From NCBI GenBank assembly GCA_020523885.1, contig JAJAPY010000001.1, positions 248,001 through 312,000 of the forward strand: a stretch of DNA of 64,000 nt, read 5' to 3'. This document shows positions 1 to 26,472 of the stretch, in pieces (the first letter of the stretch is position 1; every line of letters starts with the position of its first letter). Source of the DNA: Candidatus Liberimonas magnetica. Its GTDB lineage: Bacteria > Elusimicrobiota > Endomicrobiia > Endomicrobiales > JAFGIL01. A program made the translations under genes and the position numbers. The notes under the pieces were generated by a model. It was given only the letters and a program-made list of their open reading frames with translations, was not told the DNA's origin and searched no databases.

Positions 1-2640
1 GGCACTTTTATCCCAAAAACTACTACATATACATACAATACCGACGGTACGCTGGCCTCAAGCACAGAAAACGGCTTAATGACAGCCGGCGGCCATACAT
101 ATCGTTTAGAAAATCATACGACAACTTATACCTACAATGACAAAGGGCTTCTTGCAAGCACGACTGAGAACGGGATTATAAGAGACCTGACTGACCCGAC
201 AAAAACTATACAATTCGTTAATTTCAAAAATACTTATTTATCTTATGACGCTCAGGGCAGGCCTACCTCCTGGACAACTACAGGGGTCAAGATAGTTGGA
301 GAAGACACAACAGTCGTTCAAAAAACGCCTGCGGGTGGAACCGAGACAGTAACTGTAAGAGCTGTTACCTATACATATAACATCACGACAAGCGATGTAA
401 AGTATGATGATTTGACCGGCAAGATGAAATCGAAGACAGAACTCGGATCTATAATGTCAAGCAAGCCGGGCGACAGCATTTTGTTCGGCCGTATAGGAGC
501 GGACGGCAAATTGTCTGACGGAAAGGTGACCACCTATTTTTATGACCGTTCAACAGGAATGCTTTCCGGTGTAAAGGAAGCAGGCTACACTACTCTAGGC
601 GCCTATCAGGACGCTTCCGGCAATTGGGCCGGCGGCCAGGTCATTCAAACCGACACTACCACAACATATTCCTATAATGCTGACGGAACGATAGCTCAGA
701 CTGTTCAGAACGGGACAGTAAAAAACCTCACCGATCAGACAAAAACAGTTACATACAAAGAGTTTACAACTACATTCCTGCATTACGATGAAAAAACCGG
801 CCAGGCTGACGAATATATGACGACCGGAAAACAGCTCATAGGAGAACGTTCTGCGGTTGTAAATGTCCCGAAGGTTGATGAGAAAACAGGCGAACCTGTA
901 ATTGATGATAAAACCGGCCAGCCTGTAATGGTGCCGGTCGTATTTACGCCTCAGGAAAAAGTGTTTAATGTCACGACAAAACTTACTTTTGAGAACGGGC
1001 TGATAAAAACAAAGACAGAGTTCGGCTCTATAACATCGAACATCCCGGGTGAAAGCATAATGTATGACGCTGCAGGTAAAACTACGACATACAATTATGC
1101 CAATGGCGTGCTTTTAAGCACTGTTGAAAGCGGCAGGGTCTGGAAGGGCGACCTGGCTACAGGCCAAGGTCAATGGAGCGACTATCAGAACGTGACCACG
1201 GAGTATTCGTATTATGAGAACGGGCTGATAAAGTCGACTACAGTTAACGGCGTGGTTTATAACGAGTCTGACAAACGCCAGACTGTGCAGTATGAAAACT
1301 TTACGACTTATTATGCCGCGTATGATGCGTCCGGCAAACCTGTTGATGTAGTAGTAACAGGTGTCCAGTATATCGGTGTTGATGGCCAAGAGACGCGAGC
1401 TGGCAGGGAGCGGGAAGAAACAATTACGGTACAGCGCGAAAAAAAGACATACAATGTTTCAACTCATTATGAGTATTATACAGACGGGCGCATCTATAGT
1501 GAGACCAAGAGAGGCAGCATTACTTCAAGTATATCCGACAATACAGTAACTTACGGCGAAACTGTTAACGGCCGCTTGGGTGCATATAATAAAGGCTACA
1601 CCACACTTTACGAATATTTTAGCAACGGCCTGGTAAAAAGAACGACCTCAAACGGTACAATCTTTGAGGGCGGCAAGTTAAGCGAGAAAGTAAATGTAAC
1701 GAATGATTTTGCCTATGACGAATTCGGCAGGATGACAGCTTCCATACAGAACGGAAAAATTATATCCCTTGATTCGTCCGCAGGGGCTGAGATATATCAT
1801 AACCTTACAACAGCATATACATACGGGCCGGAAGGCGGAGGAAGAGTTACCAAGATAACCGTAAAAGGAAAAGTTGATGTAGTGGTCTATGCAGGCACCA
1901 ATGATGTAAGCGGCAAAAAGGCTGTAACTGAAACGCTTAATTACGATTCAATAACAACCTATACTTACGATCAAAAAGGAAGGATAAGTTCGGAACACGT
2001 GATGTCCAATACCTGGTCTTCTAATATGGTTGATGTGCTTGGAAGGTCTAGAAAAGTAGATGAAATAAATGTTTACACTTACAACGATAGTGACGGAAGG
2101 ATAGCAAGCATTAACAAGACCCAGCTGGACTATGATTTAGACCATGATAAGGGTACAAGGCTGGTGTTAGCCGAATCAAAAATTGAGTATCACTACGGCC
2201 AAAATGGCAAGATCGCCTACGAGGTGAGAAACGATGCCAACGCTAACCTGCCCGGGTCAGTTGAAAACAGGCTTGACGGGACCGTTGTCGCTACGTATTA
2301 CAAGAACCAGGTTACCAGGTATAACTATAATGAAAGCGGTGAACTTGTCGGCTATACAATCTCAGCCGGGGAATCCTATAGTGTCGAATTGGAAAAGATG
2401 AACGAGTATAACAATTCTGATATCAAGAATATGACAAAAGCTGAATGGGAAACGTTTGTGAGAGACAACCCGGAAGAAGCGGCCAGGCTGCAGAAAGACG
2501 GTAAAGTCTCTTATGTTGAATACAGCGATGACGGCATTTATATAGCAGAACCCTACTATAGGGTCTCTGTGGACAGAGAAGTCGTAACCAGAGGTGAAGT
2601 AAAATATGTGGTAAAAAGCAGAGAGAACCTCAAAGATCAA
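1..2640 (+). repeat. YD/RHS-like repeats with a ~180-residue higher-order unit
   Basis: The translation repeats the pattern T-T-Y-x-Y-N-x-D-G-x-L-x-S-T-x-E-N-G, for example at 118-174, 655-720, 1078-1130 and 1192-1257. The aligned Tyr codons at 127, 667 and 1204 are 540 and 537 bases apart. Each long unit also holds a TTG-K-x-I-G segment and a K-T-E-x-G-S-I-x-S segment. Later copies are shorter and more diverged. YD repeats form beta-rich shells or surface-exposed rods in RHS and teneurin proteins; the same fold is inferred here. The array continues beyond the left edge. Confidence 0.85.
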
Positions 2641-5600
2641 GTCTTTACCCGTGCAATAGTTACAGTGACAACGTTCGACAGAGGAGTAATAAATGAAAAG
2701 GTCTTCTTTGACCAGGACGGTAACAGCTCTCTTGCCTGCGGCGCAAGGATAACCAGGAGCCCTGCCACAGGAGATCTGAATTTCCAGAATATTACTATAA
2801 ATTCGGACGGCAGCGTAACGGCCTTGTTGAAAGGCATTCCGGGTATGACGATTGATACTGCCGTAAAAATAGTGGATAACCAATGGGCAGAAGCAAATCC
2901 CGATTTCTTTGCAGGAGCAAGGATAGCTGTTACTAATCAAGAAACGGGCGCCTTATTAGGATTTAAGGATAGAAATGCCTTAGAAAGGGTCGGAAGCGCT
3001 TTCGGAGCGGTTGCCGGCGGTATTGGTACTGTATTAGACAGGGTCTTTACACTTGCTGCTGGTTTGGTAATGGGAATAATAGCAGTTTCGTTCGTACCTC
3101 TAACCGGTCTTGGATTAGGCATAGCAGCATTGACCGGGAATAGAGCTTTGTTAGATACCGGCTTAGGCTTATGGAGTATGTCCTGGAGCTATATTAAAGG
3201 GACAATTACAGGCGAAAATTACGGCGGCATGACAGTAAGCGGAATGATAAGCGGTTACAAACATATATCTGCCGTAGAAGACCAGATAGCGCGCGGGTTG
3301 ATCGGCAATGCAGACGCCAATTTAAGAGCTATAGCCGGCAGGGCTTCATTTGGGACATCTATAGCAGCTACCGCAGGTGACATTGCTTTGTTTGCTGGTG
3401 AACAGGGTTTAATGATTCTTCTAACTGCGGGTATAGGGCAAATTGCTTCACTTCAAGCTGCTTGTGCATCAACTGCACGATCAATTGCCAGTCTTACAAG
3501 AGTAGCCGGGTTGTTTAGAGCTATGGCTATAGGCGGTTTCTCAACGGGGCTTATTGATGCTGCGCCGCAGATTATAGGTGAAGTTTTTGAAGGCTATACA
3601 AGCAAACAGGCAGGGACATACGGCCAGATGATAAACATGGGCAGCATGGCTAGGCAGGGTGTTTCAAGTTTCATGGTAGGTGCCGCTATCTCCGGTGCTT
3701 TGTTCGGGTTAGGGACTATCGTAAACGCCAGAGCAGCAGCGCAAGCAGCGGCAAAAGCAGCAAAAGCTGCACAAGCAGAAGCAAACGCAGCAAAAGGTTT
3801 ACAAGCCGGAGCAAAAGCTGCCCAGGCTGCAAAACAGGCTTCTGTCCTTGCCCGGGCCGGGCAATGGGTTGGCGGAAAGCTGGCAGCACCGTTTCAAGGA
3901 ATAGCCAGAGGGGTCCTTAACTTTGCCGGCAACGTTGCAGGAGGTTCTACTCTTGCGGCAGTACAGGTAGGGTTTTTAAGCGGGTTCGGAGGAGAATTTA
4001 CAGGTGTTGCGTTTGCAGGAGCTACTGCAGCAGCTCAGATATTTGTCGGGGCTGTTGTTGGCCTTGTTTTTGGTATTGCATATTTAGTGACAGGGAATGT
4101 AAATAGCAGGAACAATATGTTCGTAGGCGCGCTTATGATGTCAACAGCAGTTAACAAGGTCCTGCAGAGCTCAGCTCAATTATTAAACTCATTGCATCTT
4201 TACGGATTGGCAAATTCCCTTAACAACCTTGCGCTCAGTGTTACTATGGTTACAATAAAGTTATTTAATCCTGAAATATTTAAGGCACTTTTAAGTCAAT
4301 TTAAAGGGACCGATGAGGAGAAAGAAGCCCAGTTAAAGGCTGCCATACAAAAGCAGGCGAGCGGCGGGCATTTGAGTTTTCTAAACTTCGATCTTGCTGT
4401 CCTGGGAGGAGAGTTTGCAGGAATGGCCGTTGATTCCAATAACTTAGGAGACAGGCTCAAATACGGAGCCGCAGGGATATTCCTTGAAGCAAGCAGTGTT
4501 GGCATAGATATGGTCGGCATAAGCTTGTTAGGGAGAGTCCTTAATACCTCAAGGCCGGGTATGGCAGGTTTGGATTTTTTTGTAAACAGGCTGCCGATGG
4601 TATCCATGATATCAGGTATGGCTATGAACTGGGTTGATACTATAAAGGGATTCTGGGGAGACTCCAGTCTTGATAAGAAAATAGCTGTGCTTAAGAGCCT
4701 GGGCGGGCATGAAGAGGAAATAGCCGTACTGGAACATCAAAAGTCTCAGGCCGGCTGGAAAACTGTTTCCAGCTTTATAGGGTTTGCTATAGGCGCCGCA
4801 TATTCAAGCGCGATGATGAAGGCGTTCGGCGAGGTAGCTCAGGAGAAGATAAAGGCAAAAGTAGAAGCTGCTGAGGCAGCCGGCACTAAAATGAGCGATG
4901 TTGAAATTAAGGAGGCCTCTAAAAATATTAAATTTAGTGCAGGCGACAGGATACAAGCTGTTATTAAAGGTATTGGATCCTTACCCGGCGGGATTCTAAC
5001 TGAAATTTCAAAGCTTTTTACCCAGATTGCATTATCGGCTGTGTTAGGAGCTATTGGCGGGAAAGTCGGCTATACTCTGGGAGCTTTCTTGAGTATTGAA
5101 GGCGCTAATGTGCATGAAAAAGCTGAACAGGCCAAAAAGGTGGCAGAGGAAGCCAAAAAAGCAGAAGAAATAACCAAAGCTCAGGAAAAAGCCGCAGCTG
5201 AAGCAGCCGGCCAACACGACCAAACCCCTCAAGAAGTGACCACAAAAAGCGAACTTGAAAGCGCTTTTCAGAATATTAGAAAAATCTTCAAGGGAAAGGA
5301 TAACGCTTTTGTTAAAGAGACGTTGGAAAGATACTTTACCTCCAAGGAACCAATAATCACCATAGGGGACAGGACAGTAACCCTGACTGAAGCAAGAGCG
5401 CTTGCTCTTGACTATGCTATGGAAAGAGGGATCAAGTTAGACAGGGCGCAGGGAGTTTCTCCTTTAGTTAAAAGTGAGAATAAAAAGAAGTATGAAACTT
5501 TAAGCACGCTGCTTAACAGCTTTGCAGAAAACAAATTATTGAGTGAGGAGACAAGAAGAGATGTTTTAAAATTGCTGACTGGAGCAGAAGGCCTGTCAAA

Positions 5601-8600
5601 AGAAAACCTGGCAGAAGCCCGGGCACTAATAGAGAAAGCTCTTGAAGGGGCGAGCGCCAGTAAAGCTGCTAAAGCCGCTATGGTTGAGGCCTATCTGGCT
5701 GACGCAAGGACATGCGCATTGCACCCTGAGGCTTCAAAAGAAGCCATATTTAGGTTTCTTGTTGCAGGAGCAGACGGCCCGACAGCAGCAAAAATGGCTG
5801 AAGTTAGAGCCAGAATAACTGCAGCAGTTGAGGGTATCCTTGGCGATACTGCCGATGCAGCTGTCAAAGCTGCCATGGTTGAGGCGTATATGGCAGATGC
5901 AAGGGCAATGTACAACGGTAAACTTGCTGCATTGGTGGTAATGGCTGAAAATAAGGGACTAAAAACCCCTGACGGCCGTTCAGGAATAACTGCAGAAGAA
6001 GCCAGACTGTTAAGTGAATATAATAAAAGAGTTGAAGGCAAAGACATAATGGAGATATCAAGGGAAGACATAATGAAACTTACCCCGGAACAACTCGGTG
6101 AGCTCTTGATAAAAAAGATGCTGCCTTCTTTTCTAGAAGATGCTAAAAATATCGCAGCCCAAGGGGCCGACTACAGGGTTAAAGAAGGCCAGCTCGGTCT
6201 TTGCGTAGCTCTGGCTGAGGCAACTATCTTAGATCAATTAAATATTAAAAGCGGAGGATCTACTATACCTACACTTCAGCTTATGGTATTGCGTACAGGC
6301 GAAGGCAAGGAATCGGCCATAGGCATAGCTGCAATGACAGCTTATGATGTATTAACAAAAAAACTAGGCAGCGCAAAGATAATAATTCTTACTTCTCAGG
6401 GCAGTCTTGTGAAGCAGTTGTTTGATAACTGTGTAAAATTAAGGCCGGACCTGGCAAAAGAAGAGATGCTTAACCTTGATGCTACAAGCGACCCGAACGC
6501 CAGAAAAATGAAAAAAGGCATAATATTCATGAGCGGCGAGACATTTGACAGGGAAATACTTGCCGGCGGAGAGGTTTTTGACGGAGCAAACTGCCTTTTT
6601 GCCGATGAAATCCATAAGCTTCTAGTCCAGACAGATACCGTGCTTGGCAAGTCCCAGGGGAAGTTTTCAAGGCTTCAGGAGGGCTACTCCAGAATTGCGG
6701 AAATGATAAGAAAATCCAATGATAACGGTGAAGCTGTATTAGAAGCCTTGGCAAAAGGTGAAATCCCTATAAACGGTTTAACTACCGAGGAAGCGCAGGG
6801 GATAGCTGTGAAATTTAAATCTAATATGACGAAATCAATGGAATTTGGCGATAGTTATAAAAAAGGCATGTCAGAGCTCGTAGAGCCGCTCTGCGACCTG
6901 TATGATTTTACCGTTGGCAAGGAAGAGATGATGCGTTCACCCCAGGATATGTTAGCCCTGGCAGAGAGGTTTTTGGAAGCTGTTCAACGGGGCGAAAAAG
7001 GCACCGAACGCTTCATGGCATTGCTTAAAGCAAAGGGCCTGTCATTGGACAACAACGCTGATTCTCAAACCCTTCTTGAAACCCTTGTTAATATATTTGG
7101 CGAGATAAAGAACATAAAAGATATGAAATTTGGCAGGGATATTTCGTTTAAACAGAACAAAGACGGGACTTATGACTATGAATTGATGAACGGCAGAGGA
7201 AGGACCCTTGAAAATACGATTCTCGGTGAAATGAATATGAGCGTGCTCGCAGTTAGGCGGGCAGCGGAAGTAGCAGGGCATATAACAACTGCTGACCACG
7301 CAACTGAACTTGCCATGCTTGACGCAGCTATGCGCTCGCAGAACAGCGCTTCTACAAACATAGCCAAAGGGCTTGCCTACTTAAGGCGCCAGGGCGTGTC
7401 AATCGCTGCAGCTACCGCAACTACGGATACGATAGACCAAAGCGCGGCTGCTCTCGGTGCTGAAACTACAAGGTTGACTCTTGAGACAAGGGCTGAGTTG
7501 AAAGACAGGGTTGGTGTAAGCCTTGTGGAGACAGTTGCAGAGAAATTTAGAGCTATTATTGACTTTGTCCTTGGTACTGAAACAGTGGACAATGTTATCG
7601 CATTTGACGACATCCAAAAAATGAAAGAGGCTTTTGATGTCTCAGTTAAAGAATTGGTGAAAAAATACAGCACGGGAGATTTTAGAGCCAAAGATATAAA
7701 GCCTGTGGACTTTGAAGTTAGAAAGACGGTAATTGTCGACGGAAAAGAGGTGGAAATTGTAATTAAAGGAGTCAGGATACAAGGTGTGAGAGACGGTAAG
7801 ACCGTTGTGTTTGACGAACTGTTATTTATTGACGCTCCTAATAAAGCGACGAGGGACTTCGGCAGCCAGGTGCTTAGAGATTACATACAAAACAATAAAC
7901 TTGAAACCGAAAAAGTAGTAGGCGAGGACGGGAAGATAACCTACAAGCTCAAGGAAAAGGCCAGGGGCGAAAAGCCTACTATAGGTGCTATCGAAGGCGA
8001 CCCGGACGGCGGAGCTGTAAGGAAACATTATTTTGTGATAGATTTGATAGAGGGAGAAAACTTCGCTGCTAGTAAAGGAGCGGCAGAAGGCGTTGCGGAA
8101 CGTGCCATTAGTTTCAGGGAAGCAGGCACTAACTCCAGGCTCCTTAACAGCGCTGACCTTGTTCAGCAGATAATGCGTATCCGCGCAACTGACGACGGGC
8201 CTATGGCAAGAAGAAAAGGAAATTATGAAATTATAGTTGCCAGAGAAGATTTGGCTGCAGATATACAGGCCAAACTTGAAAAAGGTGAAAGTTTCCTTGA
8301 TATCACAAGGGACGTTTCAGGCGATGTTGACAAAAATAACCTTAAAAGGGTAGTCCAGGCTGCAAACAGCGAACAGCTCGGTGAAAGAGAGATGGATATG
8401 TATATACAAGCTATTGACGCCTTTTCATTACTCGGCGGTGAAAACGGGAGTATAGGAAAGCCCAGGGCGATGCTTGAAATTATGGCTGAGCTTGTTTCAA
8501 ACGGCAGGTCTGCAGCCTGGGTAGAACAGGTTTATACCTGGGTGGGCAGCAATAAAGAATTTGCAGGCCAGACAAACCTTATTAATGCACTTACGCAGTT

Positions 8601-11600
8601 AAAGAATTACATTGAGAGCATGCCAGAACACCCTATGTCCATATTCGGGGATCAGGTTACGGCTTTTATTTCACAGTTGATAGCGGAAAATAAACTGACA
8701 GGAAACCAGGTGAATACTATTTATCTTGCCCTGAACCCGCAATGGCAGTCAGACAGGAAAACTCGGGCAAGTTATACGGATAACCTTATATTAGGCATGA
8801 TAGCAAACCAGACCGGAATGCCTGCCCCTGTCATCACCCTTGTTAATACTGCGGAAAATGAAGCTCAACAAACAGATGTTACAGGGATAAGGCCTGTTAT
8901 TTCTTCAGTTCTTGCAAATGCCGTAGGTGCAGCCGGAACCGTTGCACTACCAGGCGCTTTGAAAGGGAGAAATGAGGATGTAGTTGCCTATATTAAAGCT
9001 CATTTTGATGAGATTGTAGCATCTTTGCCCGGCGTCAGTATTTCCAGCTCTATGAAAGATTATCTTCTTTCTCTGGACTCGGGAATAATAAACTGCGCAA
9101 TATCCTCTCTTGCGGAACTTTTCGGGGAAAGTAAGATCGAAGAGATAGGCGAAGGTGTCGGTATAGGCAAGCTGATTTCAGGTTTCGCAAAACTGATATT
9201 GTCTGCGTACGGCATTGATATAATGAGCGGTACTTTCCTGACCAATAATATGAATAAATCAATGCCGTCTTTAAGTATGGAGGCTATACTTGAGACAGCC
9301 GCAAGATATAACGTTAAACTTAAAGGTGTTGAAGGGATAACGGATATGTCAGTCCTTGCCGATTATGTGAACAACAACGGCAGCGCCATATTACTGCTAA
9401 ACATCAACGGTGTCGGGCATTTTGTGAAAGTAGTATCCCTAGATATAAAAAATGGAACTATTACCTATAAAGATAACGGTAAAGAAGTAACAGAAACCCT
9501 GGAAGGGGAGAACGGATTTAAGTCTAAACTGTCAAAAGAGGGATTGGCTTTGTTAGGCCTGGATGCAGCTGTCGGCGGGACAGTGCTTGATTCACAAAAA
9601 TTGAGGAAATATAAAGGAAGCGCTGTAGATCTTGAACCGGGTTTTGCGCAAGCGGCACAGCAGAACGCAGCAGAAACTATAACAGCCGACAAGGGCATAA
9701 ATTTACATACAAAGCTAAGCGACATAGCAAAGCTCGGAGGCAGTGCGGAAGCTGTAGCAGCCAGGATAGCCGCTCTATCTGATTTTGGTTTTTTAACCGC
9801 TCAGGAACAGGGGTTGTTCAGGGCTGTCCTGACATCTTTATTAGTTACCAACGCTGAACTTGCCTCCAAAACTAAGAACAGAGGGACAATTGCCGATTCG
9901 ATAAACAGCTTAACTTTAAACGATGTCTTAGACAAGATACAGGTGCAAAGTGCGATCCTTGAAGCCGTAACTGCTGTAAAAGCCGGCACAGTTATAGAAA
10001 GGTATCAGGCAGGCTCTATAACGGATTTGCCAGGGCTCCTTGCCACTATTGAACAGCTTACCGGAAATAATAAACTTGCTCTTGTTGACCGGTTTATAAA
10101 TGCTGTGGAACTGCGTTCAGCAAGAGAAGGTTTCAGAGGGTTCAATCCAAAAGAGGTTCTTGCCATACAAAGCTGTTTAGCTCAGCTTGGCTCAGTGGAT
10201 CTTACCGATCGGAATATAGATGTAGACAGGGTCGCAGCTTTGATCAACAGGATAACGTTATCCTGGAGTTATATCGCTTTAAAAGCGGTTAATGCAACCC
10301 AAACGCCTGCAGTCAGGACATCGGTTATTTCAGCTGATCAGCCGTTTTCAGAAGCCTCGAAATCAGGCATCGATGCCAGGCTGGCGATGGCTATATTCAC
10401 CGGCAATGAAGCCCTGGATAAAGCTGTTGAAATAGTTGAAGTCAGAGCAAAGGCCGAAGGCAGGCCTGTTTCCAGGGATGAAGTAAAGAAGGATTTAAAG
10501 AGAAACCTTGCAGACATAATTATGACAGAGTGCAGAGGAGACTTAGCTAACCTTGATGTTGAGCAGAAACGGGCGATATTGTCAACAAAGGGCGTAGGTT
10601 TGCTCTACCAGCTGGCACTTATTAAAGCTTCATCATTAGCAATGGAAAGAGCAGCCAAAACAGGCGAAACCGTCAATGTTGATCAGCTGTTAATAGAGCA
10701 GTCTGTAGAAATTGTAAAAGCTCAATTAAACCTGGGCCTTGCAGATACAGCGGCTGGTGAACGTACGGGCAATATAAAAGCTGTTGATATGCCGGTCGCA
10801 GAAGTCAGTAAACGTCTTTCCCGTACGGTTGATTCTGGCATTAATGCCGGGCAGGCTATGGCTATATTTGCAGACAGGCAAGCCTTGAGTGACATAGTTG
10901 AAATCAGGGCAAAGGCCGAAGACCGGCCTGTTTCTATGGAAGTAAGGCAGGAAGTAAAGAGGAACCTTGCAGATATAATTATGGCCGAGTGTAACGGAGA
11001 CTTAGCTAACCTTGATGTTGAAAAGAAACAGGCGATATTGTCAGCAAAGGGCGTAGGTTTGCTCTACCAGCTGGCTCTTATAAAATCCGCATCCTTACAA
11101 GTAGCTATCGATAAGTCGATAGAAATTGTAAGGACTGAATTAAATAAAGGCCTTGTAGATACAACCGCAGCCGCAGAAAAGAGACAGGTTTCTTCAGCTT
11201 TGCTGCAAACAGGGATTGAAGGTATCTCGTTTACCGATGCGGTAGAGTTACTTACAGAGGTGATCAGCTCTAATAAACACCCTTCAGCAGATATGCAGAG
11301 AGAAATGGCAAAGCTGGCAGAAATAATTATATCTGGGAACGGCGGTTTGCTTAACCTTACAAAAGAACAGGCGCAGGTATTACGTTCTGAACTGTCAAGT
11401 GAACAAGGTGAAGGTATATTGGAGGTGCTGGCTCTTGCAATGGCAAATAAAGGAGAAGCTGCTACAGCCAAAGCGGCTAAGGATAAAATATTGTTCCAGT
11501 TGGACGCCGCAGCTCTAAGGGTAGATTTTTACGGGGCAGCTGCCAGGGCTGAAGTTTTATCAGCCGAGAAACTGGCGGCAGATTTGGCTCTGCCTGAAGC

Positions 11601-14600
11601 TCAGAGACAGACGAATATTACCGCACAAACAGCTATAGATATCCTTGCAAGTAACGGGATGCTGGCTGTTGTGGCCCGGGCAAAAGCAAAAGCTGAAAGC
11701 ATGACTTTTGAAGCAGCCCTAAGCGATGTAAAGGCAAAATTGGTGACAATAGTGCTTGCGGAAAATAAAGGCAATTTGTTAGGCCTTACCCCTCTTCAAG
11801 CTGCAGCGCTTAGGTCCTGCGAAAATGAGCTTGCAGATGCTGTTTTGGGCCGCGTCCCTTCACTTGAGACAAAAGCTCAAGCCAAAGAATGGATTGAAAA
11901 ACAATTGAGCAAGGTAGCGGAAAGAACCGGGCTGGCTTATCAGTCAAATTTACTTATGAACGAAATACTTGCTTCGGAGCAGGTCGAGCAGACAGAGGCC
12001 AGGGATTTGTTGAGAGCAGATATTTTAAGAAGGGCGAATATAATTGCCTCTGATGTTTTAAAAGATGCCTCTAACCTTAATAATCTGATAAATTTACAAA
12101 CTATTATAACGGCATTGATTAATTCGAAGTTAGCGGATACACAAACTATTTCTTCGCTCATGTCCGGATTTACTTCTGCAATGTCCAGGCATGAGGAATC
12201 CGGCGGCGCCAAGCTTATGAATCAGCTTGCCATGGTAAGTATGTTCATGAGCGACCAGCAATCCCAGACAAAAATTGAAGACTATGTGCTCTCGGTAAAT
12301 AGGTTAAGCGCCGGTGTCCTGGCGCTTTCGCGGGCTGTGCTGCAAATGGGCAACAACGTGGAGTTAAAGGTTTTATTGCATAAACTCCTTGCCTCGGTTA
12401 ATATAAGCAATTTAGGAATGCAATACTGGGAAGCAGTTTTTGCAAAGGAAGCCAGAAACGATTCGGAAAAAACAGCGTTGTTAGCGCTTCTTACAGAAGA
12501 AAACGCGGAGATTGCAAAAGAAAAAATGGAAGAAAAGAGGGTCAGGGAAGTTGAGGTTGCAGCAAATTTAGGCGCTGAGGCAAAAGGCAAAGCATACCAG
12601 GGCGATTATGCAAAGGCTATGATGGAAGACGCAGCACTCGCAGGGAATATAGTAGAAGCTACCGGGAAAGATCAAGTAAAGGCCCGGTTCATCCTGGTGG
12701 GCAGTAAATGGTTTAGAGTTGAGCAGGACAAAATCTCGGTTTTGAAATATAAGTTGGTTGAGGTAGCCGATAAGGGGTTGTCAAACGAGCTTGCTCAGTC
12801 CTTTGGCAGGGCCACTCTGGCTGCGGCAGAAGAGGCAAAACAAGCAGCAGAAAGAGCCTCAGCAACAGGGGTGCAGAAGGGAGCTGCCGTGTCAGAAGTT
12901 GCGGCAGGCGCAGAAGGACAAGTGGCAGGGGCGCGTGAAGAAATTGAGGCTGGCATAAAAGAAGAGGTAAAGCGCGCCAGGGAAGACGTACGGCGCTATA
13001 ATCCTTCTCTTGAGTCTATTGATGATAAAACGTGGGCTTGGCTCGCAAGGACTCCCGTAGGCAGGTATGTGTTGGCTGTATTAATTGAAGCCAAGTGCAG
13101 GGCTCAATTCGATGAATTATACAAAGGGGCGCCAAGGGATGCAAACGGAAAGCGTGTATATAAAATGGATGACTACATGCCAGGCGGAAGCCAGGAGCAT
13201 ACGCCTCTGGGCAGGGCACTTGAAAAAATAAATGAAGCTGCCAAAGAAACAGAGGCTGTTTTGAAAATAGCTCAAGCAAGTTATCAGGATGGAAAGGCCC
13301 AGGGCCAGGAAAGAGTTGTGGAAATGGTAGTAGATTATTTTGTAGACGTATTGGAAAAAAATAAAGGCGCTGATGCTGCCGGCATAATTGAAAATATTAA
13401 GCGTGCGCCGGAAAAAACCGTAGAAGTTGAAAAAGATAAAAGGGAAGAAAAGAGGGTCAGGGAAGTTAGGGTTGCAGCAAATTTAGGCGCTGAGGTAAAA
13501 GGCAAAGCATACCAGGCTGATCATGCAAAGGCGATGGACGACGCCTTACTTAAGGGAAATATAGTAGAAGCTACCGGGAAAGACCAGGTAAAGGCGCGGT
13601 TCATCCTGGCCGGTAATAAATGGTACAGAGTCGAGCAGGACAAAACTTCAGTTTCAAAATATGAGTTGTTTGAAGTAGACGATATGGGGTTGTCAAACGA
13701 GCTTTCTCAGTCCTTAGGCAGGACCACGGTGGCTCAAGAAGAACTTGCAAAAAAAGCTCAGGAGGCGGCTCCTGTTCAGGCAGGCCAGACAGTTTTAAAA
13801 GCAGCTGACAGGGAAGCTGTCAGTGCCGTTGTCCAAACCCCTGAAGTTCAACAACAATTGGCTGCGAGAATAGAGTCTCTTGCAGGGCGTGCAGGCAAAA
13901 ACAGCCTGGACACCTGGGACGCATCGAAATTAGACGATAAGAAGGCAGAGGCGCGTAAAAATAATTTAGAAATTCAACACGGCAAGTTTGATCTGATAGA
14001 CTTGGCTTTAGGCGGGACTGCCCTGGCTGTGTTGCAGGCAGCTGCAAAACAGATAGCGGCAACCTATGATTTAAGAAAAGATTCCGTTGAAGGAGAAGCA
14101 ACAGGCGCAGTAGCAGAAGTGCGTAAACGGCAGAAAGAGGTGGTTGGTTTAAGAAGCAAGGAAGAAATACAAGCTGAAGACTATATTACGCAATTAGCGA
14201 GAGCAGGAGAAAAAGGACAACCCACTTTGGAAGAGATGGCGCAGAAGGAGGAATTTTGGGACTTCATGGCAAATAACGAGATGAGTTTAGGGCTTTGGGC
14301 CAGTTTACGGACAGCTCTTCTTAAAAAGTATCAGTTGTCAGAAAATGATATTCCTAACGCGATAGCCTTAAACCTTGCAGCAAAATATGATGTAGCAGGA
14401 GACGTAACGGTTACGGCTAATGGAGACGGCACCTACAAAGCAAGTTATGTGAAAACAAATAGAGCCGGCACAAAGACTGTGGAATTAACACTGTTAGAAA
14501 AAGATGTCAAAGGCATAGTAGAGCAGAGAGAGCTTGAGCTAGCCTTAAAACCGGCTATTGATTCAATGGTAGAGATAGCTACGAAAAGGCTTGAGACCGA

Positions 14601-17600
14601 AGGGACATCCCCTGAAGACTTGACTATGTATTATATAGCTTTAATGGTGATGCTGGCTAATTTTATCACGGTAGACTATATGCAAAAAGGTTTGCTCTCT
14701 GAACAATCCTGGGGCGGCTCTGTAATGGCAAAGGACGGCGGCGCAACCATAATGTTCCGTGCAGGCGGCGGAAAAACAGCGACAGGGGAAATAGCTGTTG
14801 CCGCAAGAGCTCTTATGTGCAAGGCAAGGCACGAAGGCAATGTTATTTCATTAACCGCGATGAGCCCGCTGATCGACCAGGGAGTTGCGGATATAAAACC
14901 TGCTCTTTCGATGCTGGGCATACATGTAAAAGCCCTGCATAATGAAGGCGACGATGCCCCGCAGACGTCGAAAGAAAAACAGGAGTATTTCTCAGAGCCC
15001 GGAGAAGTTATTGTTACTGATGCCGCGGCTGTCATTTACACCCGTGAAGATGAAATGAGCGAAAACCTTGATATATTCCAAAAGCATATCCACGTTCTTA
15101 TAGACGAAATAGATTTAAGCGCAAGAACGCCTACTTCTTATGTGCGCGCCATGGCCTCTGACCTTGTCTCGACCGGAAAAGAGGCAACGGGGGTATTTGC
15201 CGATATCATAGCCCAATGGCTGCTTGACGGCGGGATAGGAGATGTTTATAAACGTGCTGTAGAGCAGGGTAAGTTTACTGAAGAAGTAGAAAAATCCTTT
15301 GCTGAAGCCAGGGCCAGCCAGGAAAAGAAAGCAACGACCTTAATCGGGGAAGGGTGCCTTACTTTCGATGTGGCCGGCGCAGGCGAGTTAGGCGATGTCA
15401 GGCTTACAGATATGGGGAAACGGCGTATAAAGAGAATGTTTGAAGAAGGCAAGAAAGGAAGAGAGGCTGGGACGTGCATTATAGGCGAAGATGTCACTCT
15501 TGAAAAATTTGAAGAACAGGTACTTGAGCAATTAAGGGTTAACCTGGCTGTAAGGGCAAATAAAAATATAACGATTATTAAGGAAAACGGGAAGGATGTA
15601 GTTAAGCTTATAGACAAGACCGGCGCCATAACAAATCAGACTCCGGACTGGATGACCGCTAAGCAATTTAACCTTATGAGGACAAGTAACGGTTTAGTTA
15701 CTCAGGCGTTTGAAAAAATGCGTACGACCCAGACAGGCACTTTTGACACATTTATGAAAAGAGTACGAGATGGCGGTAAAGAGTCTTCGGTCATGGGTAT
15801 GACAGCCACTTATTCAAGACAGGCCTTGGATGAGCTTGCAACACTTACAGGTTATGATAAGTCGCGCATCGGCATAGCGCTTCCGACAACTTTCCCGAGC
15901 ATAATAAACTTTGACGGGTATATAAGCGCAGCTGATTCGAAACGGCTTGCCCCTGCAATAGCTGGCTGGATCACACAAAAAGGCCGCAGAGACGGAAGGA
16001 CTATGCTCATCCCTCTTTCTACCGTAGAGCAGGTTAACGGGCTAACAGATGATTTAAGGAAAGACCTGCCTAAAGGTTACAAAAAAATAAGGGTTATAAC
16101 CGCAGACACAAAAATAAAAGACAGTATTGACCCTGTGACAGGCGAGAAAATACTCGGAGCAGACTCTATACTTGCCGAAGCAAGGGCAAACCCGGATATT
16201 CTTGTCATAGTACAGTTTACTTCTGCTCTTAAAGTAAACAACAGCGGTATTGTAGACGGGGAGTACTTAAGAAAAGTAGGTTCTTTCGGGACAGGGAACA
16301 TCGTGGTTATAGGTGACGCAAGTTTGGGCAGAGGCATAGATATAAAATTGCTGAAACAAAATAGAAAGAGCCCTAATTTTATAGAGTTGGCCGCTCAGCT
16401 CAAAGCTGCAGGGTTTGTAGATACAGCCAAACTGGAAAAGCTTCAAGAAGCTGTTAAGGCAAAAGCCGGCAAAGATAAAATAGCAGAACTTCAGGCGGAA
16501 GTAGACGTACAGGCTTATGAATTTGTAGACCCACTGATAGATATGTTCAATATTGTTGACGATGACAGGAATGCCGCAAACCGTCAGAAAAAAGCTGAGA
16601 AAATAAGCGAGGCATTCAGCACCATGCAGTTAGCGATACTGAATAAGGCACTTAGAGCGGAAGGGATTACCCTAGATAGGTTGCTAGAAAGAGAAAGGGA
16701 TCAAAAAAGGTTGGACCTTGCCGAAAGGCAGGCATTATTTGCTTATATTGACGCACTGCAAAAAGGGGAATCCCTTGAAGCCAAAGGTATTGATGTGCCG
16801 ACCGCAACAAAAGCTCTGAAAAAGGTTTTAACGGATACCCGGGCACAGGCTATCGCAGAGGCGTCATTCAAGATAGATCTTACCAGAAGAATATTGTTTA
16901 CTACAATTGTAAGCGGGTATGCCAACCTTGTGCTGCCGAGTTCTCTTTCCATCGGCGAATATATACAACAGGTATTCAGAATCGGACGCTTCGACAGGCC
17001 CGGAAGCTATTCAATATTAATTAATATGGCCGAGAATGAAGGTAAAGACGCTAAAATATCTCCTTACGCGTTTATACAGCAGAATTTAGAGGCCAGGATG
17101 CCGGGGGTATTCCAGGATAAAAAATTCGCAAACAGGACACTGAAGGAAGTCCAGGCTGTAAGAGACAGGTTCATGGCTTTATGCGATGCCTTTGATAATT
17201 TAAGAGCAGGCAAAGATTTGGAAGAATCAGCCGGACTATTGCTCGATAAATTAAGCGATGAAACGGAAAGTTTCGAACTGCTTGAAAAAGGCATAAGGTT
17301 GATGATCAAAAACAAGAGGGATGTCAATGTATCCCGCAACTTGACCAAAGAAGAGATCGAGGAATTAAATAGAGAGATAGAAGAACTTCAAGCTTTCAAG
17401 GATTTGCTTTTCTCTGAAGACACCGCAGAAAAAACTAAAAAGCTGCAGGAAATGAGGGAAGAAATACTTGGGATTGACGCTCAGCTGGCATCTGAACTGC
17501 AGGATCCAACTAAACCCTGGTCCGAGGATAATAACCCTTCTTTGTCGCTTGAAGATAAGGACCGTTTAAAAACTAGAAAGACATTACTTGAAATTTTAGC

Positions 17601-20600
17601 CAATGATTTAGACAGGAATATAAGGTTACAGGGGTTAAGAGACAGCTATGCAAGAACTGAAAATAAGAAGGGTTTTGCTGCTGATGCGGAACTTCAGGCT
17701 ATCGTTCAAAACGAACTGACCAAACTTAATGCGGCGTTTTTTGAAGGATATAAGATCGCAGCTGACAGGCAGGATACCAGGGACACCGACTCAAGGCGGC
17801 AGGACGGGCCGCTTTCTTTTGTAATTGAAAGTTATGCAGCAACATTTAAACGGTTTGAAGACGCCATTCATTCCGGAAAGATCAAAGGTTTTGACGAACA
17901 CAGCATCGCAGTGCGGATGGTCTCTGACATGCTTAAGAAATTTGCCGAAAAAGAGCTTACACTTGAACAATTAAAGATGTCGCTCTCTGTATTATTCGGC
18001 AATTTGAACCTGGAAGGTTTCACGAAAGAGATCCTGGATACAAAAACAGCGGAAGATCTGGTAGATACGTTTACACGGCAGCTTTCCAGGCAGGGCAGGA
18101 AAAACATCCTGGCAGAGGGCCTGCTTGACCTGATGAAGAGCTATAACGCTTCAAATTTTGTAAAGGGCGGCCAGGACTGGCAGCACAGGTTAGGTGCCAT
18201 GCAATTGCCAAACGGGAATTTTAGTATTCCAAGTGTTAAGGCCGAGTCGACTATAGGAAAAACCGTAAGAGGTTTTATAGGTTTTGTGAGGGGGAAGAAT
18301 AAGTTTAGAGATATACAAGCTCCAAGCCTCAATTTTAGTAAGAGCAGAATTGATGTTAAACTCAACCTTGGCCAGGGAATAAAGGTCTTTGTAATGGCAA
18401 TTATAGGGAAAATATCGGCTGTATCTAAAACAGGAGAGCTGTTAAGCGGGTTCCGCATTGAATTTATTAGCAGGCGCTCTATAGATGGTGTATTAAAGAG
18501 TTACATAAAAGAACAAGTTGCAAATTTGAGCAGTACCGCGGGCGTTGTAAAGTCCTATAACGATAAAGCAGTACGCGAACTTGCTTATGATCTGGACTTT
18601 TTGGCACAAGCTATAGAGGAGGCGCAAAAACGGGAAGTAGGCTTGGCAAAAGACTTCCTTATCATGTGGGCTAGATTAAAACATATAAAATGGCTTGAAA
18701 AATACGCTAAAACGTTAAAAGCAGACGATAAAGTTGTGGACGTCCTGGTTGATTTAATAGAGAAGAAAAGAGAAGAAATTGCCCGCTTAAAAGTTGAGTC
18801 CATAGAAATGCTTGAAGGCAGCGTGGCTATAAAGAAGGGGAGAGACGGAAAATTGCATGCCGAGGAAATAGAGAAGGCGGTTGTACGCGAAATAGAAGCC
18901 GAGTCAAGCAAGAAGCAGTCAAGAACGGAAAAGTTTTCAATGTATGCTCAGATAGTATTTGATGTTTTAAGAATAAAATTATTCCGTTCAGGATTAAGTG
19001 TGGTTGAGGGTACAAACCTGAAGGGGCATACTTCAGAAGTTATAGATACTTCCCCTGCAGGGAATGTGAAAAGAGTTGAAAACGTTGAACAATCCGGAAA
19101 GCGTACGGCAGTGGCTGGTGATGGCGTTAAGTATGATTATAATGAGGAACTCCTCAATGCTGAAGCAAGGAGGCGTGCAGATGCTGAACTTACCATTGAT
19201 CTAAGGGCCAAGGCTGAAGCCGCTAAGCCTGAAGAAGCTAAAGATAAAAAGAAAGAAGCTAAAGCAGTAAAATCAAAGGCCGAAAAGACGCGGCAAATGA
19301 CTTTGCAGAGCGTTGAAGGACAAGCCGAAAATAAGATGAAAGCGCAGGCACAGGCACAAGCACAAGAGGAGGCACAGGTACAAGTGCCGCCGGAGCCGTC
19401 TAAAGAGCAAATCCTAGAGAATGCAGAAGTAAGAAGCCTGGCCAGAGGTGAAATTGTCCAGCTGCTTGCAAAAGTGAAAAACAATAATAACAGGCTCAGT
19501 GCATTAGATGCGGAACAACTTGAAAGGCTTACCAATTTGTACCCTGATCTGGTAAAGGAAGTTGCACAGGAACTTGGAAGAACCCAGTTTGAGACACATA
19601 AGGAAAAAGGCGGCCTTGCAGGTCTTATAAAGAAGGTTTCAGGGTTCTTAAAAAAGTTCTTTGATTTTTCAACTCCGGCTGCAGGCGTTAAGTCGGTGGC
19701 AACCATAGCTGGAGTTGGGTTATTGTTCGCTTTTGGAGGGCCTATAATAGGGTTATCCGGCCTGTTGATACTTGCTTTCTTGCAGGATACGCTAATGGGT
19801 TTATTCGGCGGAGGCAGTCTTAAGGACAAACTTCCGTTCGGCCTTGGTAAAAAGCTCGGAGGGCTGTTGCCTGGCGCTGATTCCGGGAAGCAGGTTACCT
19901 GGGGTGCGGCTATTGCTGCAGTAACGTTTACGACCATAATTTTGACATCTTTAATACTTACAGGCGGGCTTGGCCTTTTTGCAGTGCCGATACTTCCTGC
20001 AATCTTTGGGCCTGTACTGCATGTAGGCGCTGTATTATTAGGGCCTGTAGGGAATATAATTGCCGCATTCTTAGGGCATATACTAGGCGCCGGAACACTT
20101 GCATCTTTGGGTAATATACTGGGTGCCGGAGCGTTTGCATCCTTAGGCCATACGCTGAGCGGAGTGGTTGCAGGCATAACTGGCCAAACGCTTGCAAATA
20201 TCGGTATGATGTTCCTTCCGAAAGTCCTTGATAAGGGATTGGAAATAGCGAAGTCGAAAGTTGGTGATCCTATTAATGCTAAAGTTATAACTCCTATAAA
20301 AAATAAGCTGGGTATAGAAGATAAAGCAGATACAAAGGGAGCAGACGAGGCGTTAAAGAACGGCGTTGTTTCAGCTTTAAAAGCTTTCGGTATAACAAAA
20401 GAAAGCACTCCTCAGTTGTTTGAGCAGTACACAAAAAATCCGGATCCGAGGATCCCTGCTTATCTTAACTGGTTAAAGAAACAGGGGCTTGAGCCGTCTA
20501 TTATTTTGTTTAGCGAAAAAACACTAAAGGATTTTACTGAAGCAGCGAAAATTATTGGCTCTTTTAGATTAAATGTGACTGACCTGAACCTTGGCAGGTT

Positions 20601-23600
20601 TAAAAAGACATTGAAAACTAACGCTAAACTTAATGCGCTTATTATTGAAAAACTCGGCATTAAACCTGAACAACTTGATACACTTACAGAACAACAGCTG
20701 GTGGATGCCTTAAATGGCAAGATTGATACGCTTACAGACGAGCAGAAACAGCTGGTGCAGGTATTAAATAAAGCTATTGAGGGGCTTAAAAGGAAACAAC
20801 TGGCGGATGCATTGAATGAAATGCTTTACCTGGATGATTTGTATACGAAGATTGGGCAAGATGCCGCATTGTCTGACGAAGAAGCAAATAAGATATTGAT
20901 AAAAGCAAGGAACAATCAAGCGTTAACAAACGATGAGAGGCTATCATTGAACATGGCTATTTTATGCGAATTTTACCCGAAAGAAATTAAGAAGACCCAG
21001 ACTAAATTGCTGAAAACCGAAGTTCCGGCAGATGAAACAGGCATTGTCTACGCCGATTATGCTGCAGAAAACATTCTTGAGCAGGCAGGCAGTTACGGCA
21101 CGGTTTCACAAGCGTACATTGACCTTCTTATATCGTCGCTTGTAAGGCTTCAGGTTATAAGTGCGGAAGATGTAAAGAACAAAACGCTGCAGGAAATAAT
21201 GTCAATTGCCAAGAACAAGATTGCGGAAGCGAAAGGTTCCATAAAATTATCCGGTACCACAGAAGCTCTTATAGCTCTGCTTGCAGACCCGGGTCAGGAC
21301 AAGGCACAGGTGTTTAAGATCGCAAGAGAGCTTGCAAAGATAAAAGAAAAAGAAAAGGGCGGAGCCCTAGACCCGCAGATGTTGAAGCAATTTGGAAATA
21401 ATCCTCAACTGATGCAGATGATGCAGCAGATGCAGCAGCAGCAGCCCTTTGAGTATACAATGGCGCATGTTGAACAGGTTATTGATGTTATGGACCGTAA
21501 AGGCGGGAAAGGCCCTGAGCCTGAGAAACGGCGCCTACAGTTGGAAAATACTGTCTTGCTTCTTATTTTAGGCAGCGGGCAGCGTTTGGTTGACCAGGCA
21601 AAGGAGATAATCGAAAGCGAAGGAAAAGAGGGCGGCCTTCTGGAAAACATGGCCAAGACAAGGGCTTATCTCTGGTATGAAGAATACAAACAAACAGGCA
21701 AGACTCTTGCTCCAAACCCTGAAGACAGCACAGCCCAGTATTTTGAAGCTTTGAGGCAAATCAAAGAAGAGCAGCAGAAGATCATTGATGATCAGGGAAA
21801 ACATAGTGCGCAGGCTATGATAGAGACTCTGAAAAGAGAATTTATAACGGCCAGGAATGAATACACGGATTTCTATCAGAAATATTTTGATGCAAAACGC
21901 GACTGGAAAAAACAACCTTTCGGCAGCCTTGATACTGATAAAGAGTATTTAAACGGCATAAAATTGACACCCGGGTTTGATTTTGCGGAATATCTGAAGA
22001 AGTTCTTTGCAGGCCATCGTATGGACAAACCGGCAAAGGGCATAGCTAGTGTTGTTGACGCCATGTTTAAGGGGTTGGCTGAAAAGTTCGCTGGCTCCGC
22101 CGATATACTTGCGTCTCTTAATGCACTTATAGCATCGTTAAAATCCATGCCGTTTGAACTTAAAGAGCCGGCCCATTACGGCCAGGAACCCGCCAAAGAC
22201 AGGAACTTCTTCCAGTTTATAGATGAAGACACACAGATACAGGCATTGATAGCTGCTGTGCAAAAAGACTTTAATCAGGCTAATGTAGAACAGCTGGTTA
22301 AACGTTTAAGCGATCTTATCCAGCAATACCCTCAGGATAAGTCCCAGTGGGACCCTGCAGAAGGTGTAAAAGACGGCTGTATTTCGGCTACCCTGCGCAC
22401 ATATCTTGCAGCTCTTATGCTTGAGACCTGGGCGGATAAATACAATTGGAAAAAGGTGAGTGTCGACACCGTTGAAGTTATGATGGCCGGTTCTGAAAAG
22501 GTCTCCAGAAAAGCCCTCACGGTTTCGGTCGGTAATGATACTACTGTTGTTGATTTTGGCAAGGCATTGCGTCTGGGCAGAGTAACGACAGCTAAAGCCT
22601 TTTACGGCAAAGAAATAGAGATAACTTTGTCGGTACCCGAAGAGGCCAAGTTCACTATCCTTTCAGGTAAGACTATTGGACAGAACCTGCTGTCTGCTCA
22701 TTTAAACAATGTAGCCGTAAATCAATTATTTCTTCAAAAAAAGACACAAGAAGCTGAGACTATGTTAAATCTGGTTATAGGCATGGGCGGCGATATATCT
22801 TTGGCATTAGGAAACCTGTTTATAATGTTAGGAGAACAAGGGAAGTGGGATGAAGCGATGGAGTTGTGGGAACAGTATGAAAAAAAGATACCTCTTACGG
22901 CTCCGTATGCACAGCTCTATGAACAAGCAGCCAAGATCTATAACAGGCTGGCTGGTATAGCTGAAAGGAATGAAGATTATAAGGAAGTTTCTGCTTATTA
23001 CGCTAAAGCCGAAAAATGTGCCAGTGCAGCTATCGCAAATGCTGCTGATAAGAAAATAAAATGTTTAGCCTTAAATGAATATGCAACTACGCTTCGCGGC
23101 CTGGGAAGGCTTGAAAGTAAGCCAGAGAAATATTCCGAATTATTCAAAAAAGCTAAGCAGGCTGCAGAGGAACTTATAGCGTTAGGAAAAGAAATACAAA
23201 ATGAGGAGGCGGAGTTAAGTGGTTATGACTCAATGGTATATATATTTATCGATGAATATCATAAGACTGATGTCAGATTGCCGCAAGTAGAAAAAGAGAT
23301 AATGAAATATATAAACCTGGCTACTCCGTTGTGTAAAAAGCTCAAGAGAAATGAAGACCTCGGCAGAATGGCGGCTTCTCTTGCGAGCATTTTGTTAGGG
23401 CAGGGAGATTATAAAGGAGCTGAACAACAGTACCGCAAGGCTTTGAAATTTGGGTATACGTCTGTTGAGATATGGAATAATTTGATTATCGTTATGCTGC
23501 TGCAGGACGAGAGCCGTTCCCGGGATATAAAAGATGTGGTAGCCCAGGCTTTTCAGGGCGGGTTCCTTACTGAAAAGCATTTATCTTTGCTTTTAAAGAG

Positions 23601-26472: not shown

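What the first reader, a model, noticed from the sequence alone, without database searches (positions are those of the whole stretch)
1..26472. A >8,823-residue protein combining YD-like repeats, two SecA-like motors, a C39-like peptidase domain and hydrophobic blocks
The window shows one uninterrupted frame of 26.4 kb, still open at the left edge. SecA-type motors are normally separate soluble ATPases. Two within one chain, with a peptidase domain of the kind used in export and two membrane-like blocks, suggest a protein that carries its own translocation or processing modules. Giant genes are known in Omnitrophota; this domain mix as a self-contained export/processing system is, to my knowledge, not described. 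This is the strongest candidate for a new system here.
Basis: partly seen in the sequence, partly recalled or inferred. Interest (0 to 1): 0.85.

Follow-up and report, generated by a model that had tools for sequence, protein, structure and literature searches.

The report
Giant protein with built-in SecA-like motor
A bacterial gene in this window encodes one 12,177-residue protein that contains at least one motor derived from the protein-export ATPase SecA, together with peptidase-like and self-cutting domains, and related giant proteins with built-in SecA-like motors recur across a whole bacterial order (Endomicrobiales), which suggests giant proteins that may carry part of their own export and processing machinery.

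Summary
The frame is real and longer than reported: 12,177 aa from an ATG with a GGAGG site about 10 kb upstream of the window to the stop at 26472. No stop interrupts it, and the coding frame scores best in 24 of 24 blocks. Motor 2 (window 14668-17070) is SecA-derived: a SecA profile built without it finds it, its family profile hits SecA first in the PDB, and its model matches SecA first. Motor 1 (6178-8280) has an SF2 nucleotide-binding domain and SecA-like motif order, but degraded motifs; its SecA subtype is only probable. There are three C39-like domains (two with Cys/His/Asp) and, upstream, a Hint/intein domain with every splicing motif. The organism is not Omnitrophota but Elusimicrobiota, order Endomicrobiales. 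SecA-like motors lie in frames over 1000 aa in 29 of 84 genomes of that order. Most share a core: N-domain, TM hairpin, SecA-like motor, about 10 TM helices, often C39. The embedded motors lack SecA's wing/scaffold and SEC-C. Most likely these are membrane-tethered SecA-type motors acting on the giant chain itself, with cysteine-peptidase and Hint processing; the mechanism is inferred. Giant genes are known in this phylum, but I found no report of this architecture.

The parts
1..26472 (+). C-terminal 8,823 codons of one 12,177-aa ORF; the first 3,354 codons lie upstream, in L003:9939-20000 (G000:C1:237939-248000)
1..2400 (+). YD/RHS-like repeats (they begin upstream at full aa about 3136)
   Evidence: NCBIfam YD_repeat_2x above cut-off; about 180-aa internal repeats
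3043..5070 (+). Gly/Ala-rich hydrophobic block 1 (5 TM-like segments), N-terminal to motor 1
   Evidence: hydropathy
6178..8280 (+). Motor 1: SF2 ATPase module, probably a divergent SecA-like motor; RTGEGKE with K at 6307, DE at 6604, TAT at 7414, R of motif VI at 8176; the Thr of Walker A and the second Arg of motif VI are replaced
   Evidence: Pfam DEAD 1.9e-4 and ResIII 2.5e-4, both below cut-off; hhalign of its NBD1 to the giant motors, E 2e-4; motifs in register; beats 53 of 53 controls; NBD1 pLDDT mostly 62-81, mixed SF2 hits incl. SecA-N68 rank 2; positions
9007..9522 (+). C39-like papain-fold domain, copy 3; Cys 9094, His 9418, Asp 9472
   Evidence: Pfam Peptidase_C39 E 0.013, below cut-off; family profile iE 8.6e-32, with this copy among the rows of the profile
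10432..11181 (+). internal duplication (full aa 6836-6947 and 6990-7085)
   Evidence: iE 1.2e-26
12493..13893 (+). internal duplication (full aa 7523-7684 and 7828-7989)
   Evidence: iE 2e-44
14668..17070 (+). Motor 2: SecA-like motor with motifs intact; GGGK K at 14773, DE at 15103, TAT at 15802, GRGID at 16327, motif VI (QQVFRIGR) around 16969
   Evidence: SecA profile without it: E 9e-5; hhalign 97.3%, E 1.9e-11, controls 0.1-0.2%; A4 profile to PDB SecA 4e-35; AF2 + Foldseek top 27 all SecA; positions
19678..20217 (+). hydrophobic block 2 (5-6 TM-like segments), C-terminal to motor 2
23377..23487 (+). TPR-like repeats
   Evidence: Pfam TPR_14 above cut-off

Best explanation
The gene encodes a giant, membrane-anchored protein of an Endomicrobiales bacterium. 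It contains at least one SecA-derived ATPase (motor 2, motifs intact) and a second, degraded SF2 motor, both between two membrane-like blocks. It also has papain-fold C39-like domains and, near the N-terminus, a Hint autoprocessing domain. The most likely mechanism is as follows. The N-terminal membrane segment enters the ordinary Sec pathway, and the YD-repeat and beta-rich part goes outside. The motor module stays on the cytosolic side, tethered by the membrane blocks. It uses ATP to grip and push unfolded polypeptide, most plausibly the protein's own very long chain, while C39-like and Hint domains cut the chain into mature parts. Motor 1 would be a non-catalytic clamp or regulatory partner. 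Shown: the frame, the identity of motor 2, the C39-like and Hint domains with catalytic residues, and the recurrence of a membrane-flanked SecA-like motor in other giants. Inferred: topology, ATPase activity, action on its own chain, and cutting.
For: Motor 2 is found by a SecA profile built without it, with NBD1, PPXD region and NBD2 collinear; hhalign 97.3%, E 1.9e-11, against controls at 0.1-0.2%. The family profile hits 24 SecA sequences first in the PDB (4e-35 for the best), then, apart from a SecA chimera, DEAD-box helicases at 5e-5. The AF2 model's top 27 matches are all SecA. ATPase residues are invariant or nearly so across 33 motors. PPXD is above cut-off in L010, L011 and L014. The motor is followed by about 10 TM helices in most relatives; in most of 27, loops on the motor side carry most K+R (454 against 198 in sum), which favours the cytosolic side. 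C39-like copies 2 and 3 keep Cys, His and Asp. The Hint domain has Hom_end_hint above cut-off, with C, TxxH and HNC motifs. Motor plus C39 is present in 10 other giant frames and in 8 frames of named GTDB records, which partly overlap with these.
Against: The embedded motors lack SecA_SW and SEC-C, which canonical SecA of the same genome shows at 3e-69 and 9e-10, so docking on SecY is doubtful. The window protein lacks the N-domain and TM block of the core family, so topology cannot be carried over directly. The motor 2 model is low-confidence overall (mean pLDDT 58) and its alignment held one canonical SecA row and two close to it. In about 7 of 27 relatives the loop charges are even or reversed with this crude TM finder. 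Nothing shows a substrate or cleavage.
Confidence: 0.35

Rival explanations
1. A giant polymorphic-toxin-like or effector protein. YD repeats form a shell, the Gly/Ala-rich hydrophobic block acts as a translocation segment, Hint and C39-like domains release payloads, and the SecA-like and C39-like domains act inside a target cell.
For: YD repeats, Hint and papain-like peptidases are standard parts of polymorphic toxins (PMC3482391). SecA-like helicase-related domains occur in Amoebophilus effectors (PMC3482391) and SecA in the phage WO eukaryotic association module (PMC5062602). The C39-like profile's best PDB hits, weak, are CdiA chains (E 0.003). Many relatives are rumen isolates or named after termites. 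The window protein has a Hint domain that no other giant here shows.
Against: In most relatives the motor sits between a TM hairpin and about 10 TM helices with a positive-inside pattern, as expected of a resident membrane protein. No C-terminal toxin domain or immunity neighbour was recognised; downstream genes are YajQ-like and cobalamin genes.
Confidence: 0.3
2. The SecA-derived modules are captured ATPase domains with a regulatory or structural role in giant envelope proteins (switch, clamp, or remodeller of protein or nucleic acid) and no protein translocation.
For: Wing/scaffold and SEC-C are missing. Very fast divergence: end branch 3.49 for motor 2. Motor 1 motifs are degraded. DEAD-box helicases are the next PDB family.
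Against: Walker A, DE and motif VI residues are kept across 33 motors, and the preprotein-binding domain is kept in the clearest cases, which points to a working peptide-handling motor.
Confidence: 0.28
3. Assembly artefact or decayed gene: the long frame is a misjoin or a pseudogene.
For: Draft assembly in 29 contigs; no relative of the two motors was found by single-sequence search.
Against: No stop in 12,177 codons and coding frame best in 24 of 24 blocks. Other long frames with the same motor, up to about 11,700 aa, occur in 28 genomes.
Confidence: 0.02

Closest known systems
SecA preprotein translocase ATPase (Pfam PF07517, PF01043, PF21090, PF07516)
   Same: DEAD motor with NBD1, an insertion between motifs II and III at the place of PPXD, NBD2, QxxxRxxR motif VI; PPXD above cut-off in the clearest embedded motors; the profile's best PDB family
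   Different: embedded in a giant chain; no wing/scaffold or SEC-C; about 20% identity; the genome has its own complete SecA of 897 aa
Giant proteins of Omnitrophota (PMC10066038) and of the wider PVC lineages including Elusimicrobia (PMC12057145)
   Same: giant ORFs with many TM helices and few annotated domains
   Different: I found no mention of SecA in the Omnitrophota paper; here the lineage is Endomicrobiales and a conserved SecA-like core is defined
Polymorphic toxins with RHS/YD repeats, Hint and papain-like peptidases (PMC3482391)
   Same: YD repeats, Hint, C39-like papain fold
   Different: membrane-flanked SecA-derived motors in the middle; no recognised C-terminal toxin or immunity gene
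SecA-like domains in Amoebophilus effectors (PMC3482391) and SecA in the phage WO eukaryotic association module (PMC5062602)
   Same: SecA-related domain inside proteins with other roles
   Different: those are reported as effector or host-interaction proteins, not giants with a conserved N-domain and TM block

Membership tests
SecA translocase (for motor 2) | SF2 motor motifs (Q, Walker A, DE, TGT/TAT, GRGTD, QxxxRxGR) in SecA order | tested here: met
SecA translocase (for motor 2) | preprotein cross-linking domain (PPXD) between motif II and III | tested here: inconclusive
   233-aa insertion at the right place, but no Pfam hit in motor 2 itself; SecA_PP_bind above cut-off in relatives L010, L011, L014
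SecA translocase (for motor 2) | wing and scaffold domain (SecA_SW) and SEC-C | tested here: not met
   absent in motor 2 and in the relatives tested with flanks; canonical SecA control positive at 3e-69 and 9e-10
SecA translocase (for motor 2) | ATP-driven movement of polypeptide through SecYEG | not testable with these tools
   needs biochemistry
SecA-like motor (for motor 1) | SecA-type SF2 motor | tested here: inconclusive
   DEAD/ResIII about 2e-4, below cut-off; hhalign E 2e-4 for NBD1; 11 of 15 family-invariant residues against at most 62% in 53 controls; Foldseek mixed
Peptidase C39 | Pfam Peptidase_C39 above cut-off | tested here: inconclusive
   copy 1 1.1e-9, above cut-off, but without the Cys; copies 2 and 3 below cut-off (0.0013 and 0.013)
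Peptidase C39 | Cys-His-Asp catalytic residues | tested here: met
   copies 2 and 3; not copy 1
Hint/intein | N-terminal Cys, TxxH, C-terminal HN-Cys | tested here: met
   L003:14679, 14880, 15117
RHS/YD polymorphic toxin | YD repeats | tested here: met
   NCBIfam YD_repeat_2x above cut-off
RHS/YD polymorphic toxin | C-terminal toxin domain and immunity gene | tested here: not met
   no toxin family at the C-terminus and no immunity-like neighbour recognised

The most novel reading that the evidence does not exclude
The core shared by these giants (N-domain, TM hairpin, SecA-derived motor without scaffold, about 10-TM domain, C39-like peptidase) is a single-chain protein exporter in which the polytopic domain serves as channel or channel adaptor. 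Giant proteins would carry it to export and trim their own tails, independently of free SecA.
Probability: 0.15. Interest if true: 0.92.

Novelty: new variant of a known kind. Interest (0 to 1): 0.66.

Why it matters
How bacteria export proteins of 5,000 to 12,000 residues is an open question. Here a whole order encodes giants with a SecA-derived motor fused to membrane helices and often a cysteine-peptidase-like domain. That gives a concrete, testable hypothesis (a motor carried in cis) and a defined family with conserved active-site residues. It also corrects the lineage and shows that SecA motors have been captured into other proteins and kept while losing the wing/scaffold and SEC-C parts.

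Tried and rejected
Single-sequence searches with motors 1 and 2 in 100 related genomes, motor 1 in GTDB contigs, and motor 2 in plasmids found no relative. phmmer of the motors against the PDB gave nothing useful. A first MAFFT of three motors misplaced motifs; a profile iterated from canonical SecA worked instead. The idea that the polytopic block is SecY was tested and not supported: no Pfam or PDB match. PHROGs found nothing. The N-domain has no Pfam or PDB match; a resemblance to the Tiki/ChaN superfamily (conserved DLH, E, GGFH) is from memory and untested. The antisense ORF of 423 aa at 19137-20408 is taken as chance. Omnitrophota was rejected as the lineage. A pattern search with alignment A7 was impossible.

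Full report
THE FRAME. The ORF at window 1-26472 has no stop. The upstream contig (L003 = G000:C1:228001-248000) carries the frame to L003:9927 (GTG) or, with a GGAGG site, ATG L003:9939: 12,177 aa. There are no N. Codon usage learned from ordinary genes of the window favours this frame in all 24 blocks of 1.5 kb, and the probability of no stop by chance is about 1e-406. The frame ends at 26472 and is followed by a YajQ-like gene, tRNA-Phe and cobalamin genes.

DOMAIN MAP (full numbering from GTG = 1; window aa = full minus 3358). Membrane segment about 58-76 (sequence). C39-like copy 1, about 257-418, Pfam 1.1e-9 but without the catalytic Cys. Helical repeats, 447-559 duplicated at 1201-1328. 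C39-like copy 2, 1391-1566, Cys 1418, His 1506, Asp 1522. Hint domain, 1585-1732, with Cys 1585, TxxH ending at His 1652, HNC starting at 1731; Hom_end_hint 40 bits against a cut-off of 32.1. Lys/Asp linker and beta-rich region 2000-3100 (sequence reading). YD-like repeats about 3136-4158. Hydrophobic Gly/Ala-rich block about 4373-5048. Motor 1 about 5418-6118. C39-like copy 3, 6361-6532. Motor 2 about 8248-9048. Hydrophobic block 2, about 9918-10097. TPR-like repeats about 11151-11187.

MOTOR 2. Single-sequence searches failed. The SecA_DEAD family search of 44 relatives showed hits inside giant frames, and a profile was iterated from canonical SecA plus two such frames. At iteration 2, before any sequence of this gene was included, it hit full aa 8267-8729 at E 9.4e-5 (5000-sequence scale), covering NBD1, the insertion and part of NBD2; the reversed protein gave nothing. 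hhalign against the family without this gene gave 97.3% and E 1.9e-11, while four other stretches gave 0.1-0.2%. A profile of ten giant motors (one of them motor 2) hits 24 SecA chains in the PDB at 4e-35 to 1e-16, plus a SecA chimera at 6e-7; the next family is DEAD-box helicases at 5e-5. AF2: mean pLDDT 58, NBD1 region about 76-88; Foldseek's top 27 are SecA, though global TM-scores are low (0.25-0.36 by query length). Caveat: the alignment held one canonical SecA row and two close to SecA.

MOTOR 1. Pfam DEAD 1.9e-4 and ResIII 2.5e-4, both below cut-off. hhalign of its NBD1 to the giant motors gave E 2e-4 but probability 46.6%; against the larger family there are only three weak collinear pieces. 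In an alignment with SecA and giants the motifs fall in register, and 11 of 15 family-invariant residues match, against at most 62% in 53 controls. AF2 is poor (mean 46) except NBD1, and Foldseek gives mixed SF2 helicases with SecA-N68 at rank 2. Its Walker A reads GEGKE and motif VI RIRATDDG, so catalysis is doubtful. I call it SF2 with a probable SecA origin.

RELATIVES. A10 (N-domain) found 253 GTDB stretches; the best 80 are named Endomicrobium, Ruminimicrobiellum, Proruminimicrobium, Endomicrobiales or Elusimicrobia records. So the window lies in order Endomicrobiales, phylum Elusimicrobiota, not Omnitrophota. Profile A4 finds canonical SecA in almost every genome of the order and, besides it, SecA-like matches in frames over 1000 aa in 29 of 84 genomes (my count). 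Thirty-two such frames from 28 genomes were collected. Most share an N-terminal membrane segment, a 519-aa N-domain, a TM hairpin near 670-705, the motor near 900-1550, and about 10 TM segments near 1800-2200. Ten also have a C39-like domain after the TM block. The window's protein shares the motor and C39-like domains but not, detectably, the N-domain or TM block. In the tree, embedded motors separate from canonical SecA (SH-aLRT 98); the window's branch is long and its place unsure.

WHAT THE MOTORS LACK. L010 and L011 show SecA_DEAD, P-loop_SecA and SecA_PP_bind above cut-offs, and L014 shows SecA_DEAD and SecA_PP_bind, but none of the nine embedded-motor stretches tested with flanks shows SecA_SW or SEC-C; the genome's canonical SecA shows both. 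So the embedded modules are SecA's motor half.

TOPOLOGY. With a hydropathy-based TM finder, K+R in the loops of the TM block sum to 454 on the motor's side and 198 on the other, with about 20 of 27 proteins in favour. This favours a cytosolic motor but is crude.

LITERATURE. Giant ORFs are described in Omnitrophota (PMC10066038), and giant genes are said to be common in Elusimicrobia (PMC12057145). SecA-like domains are noted in Amoebophilus effectors and SecA in phage WO. Searches of the held library found no paper describing SecA-like motors in giants of these lineages. Preprints are not held, so prior description cannot be excluded.

VERDICT. Domain identities are secure for motor 2, the Hint domain and the YD repeats, good for C39-like, and probable for motor 1. 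The functional reading (tethered SecA-type motor plus autoprocessing) is the best of three close rivals at 0.35.

Noticed in passing
G000:C1:66928, C1:192542 (-), C4:154252 (-), C4:17266 (-), C14:71571: The window's own genome has at least five more long frames that hold the N-domain (11603, 10958, 6931, 6123 and 2671 aa); the one at C4:154252 also carries a SecA-like motor.
   Followed up: partly
alignment A10; e.g. L015:6841-8391: A conserved 519-aa N-terminal domain (36-87% identity, with invariant DLH and GGFH motifs) on many giants of the phylum, with no Pfam or PDB match. It looks like a shared entry module of Endomicrobia giants.
   Followed up: partly
alignment A11; e.g. L015:11563-12984: A polytopic membrane domain of about five hairpins with basic loops follows the SecA-like motor; no Pfam or PDB family.
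   Followed up: partly
L003:14679-15125: A complete-looking Hint/intein-type domain upstream of the window, between C39-like copy 2 and a Lys/Asp-rich linker; no other giant collected here has one.
   Followed up: partly
L010 and L011 (G104, G105; same phylum, outside the class): Giant frames of 4433 and 5255 aa with motors still close to SecA (E about 1e-94 to canonical SecA): possible intermediates in the capture of the SecA motor.
   Followed up: partly
G000:C4:135250-135359 (L006): A run of N lies between giant2 (6931 aa) and a following open frame of 4453 aa; they may be one gene across a gap.
   Followed up: no
window aa 8240-8410 (nt 24718-25230): A C-terminal stretch with VAFIGEN and CFIGAGH motifs recalls Tiki/ChaN-type domains from memory; Pfam gave no such hit.
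   Followed up: no
L015 and L024, between the TM hairpin and the SecA-like motor: A HELRH motif lies shortly before the SecA-like motor in two giants and looks like a possible zinc-peptidase remnant (sequence).
   Followed up: no
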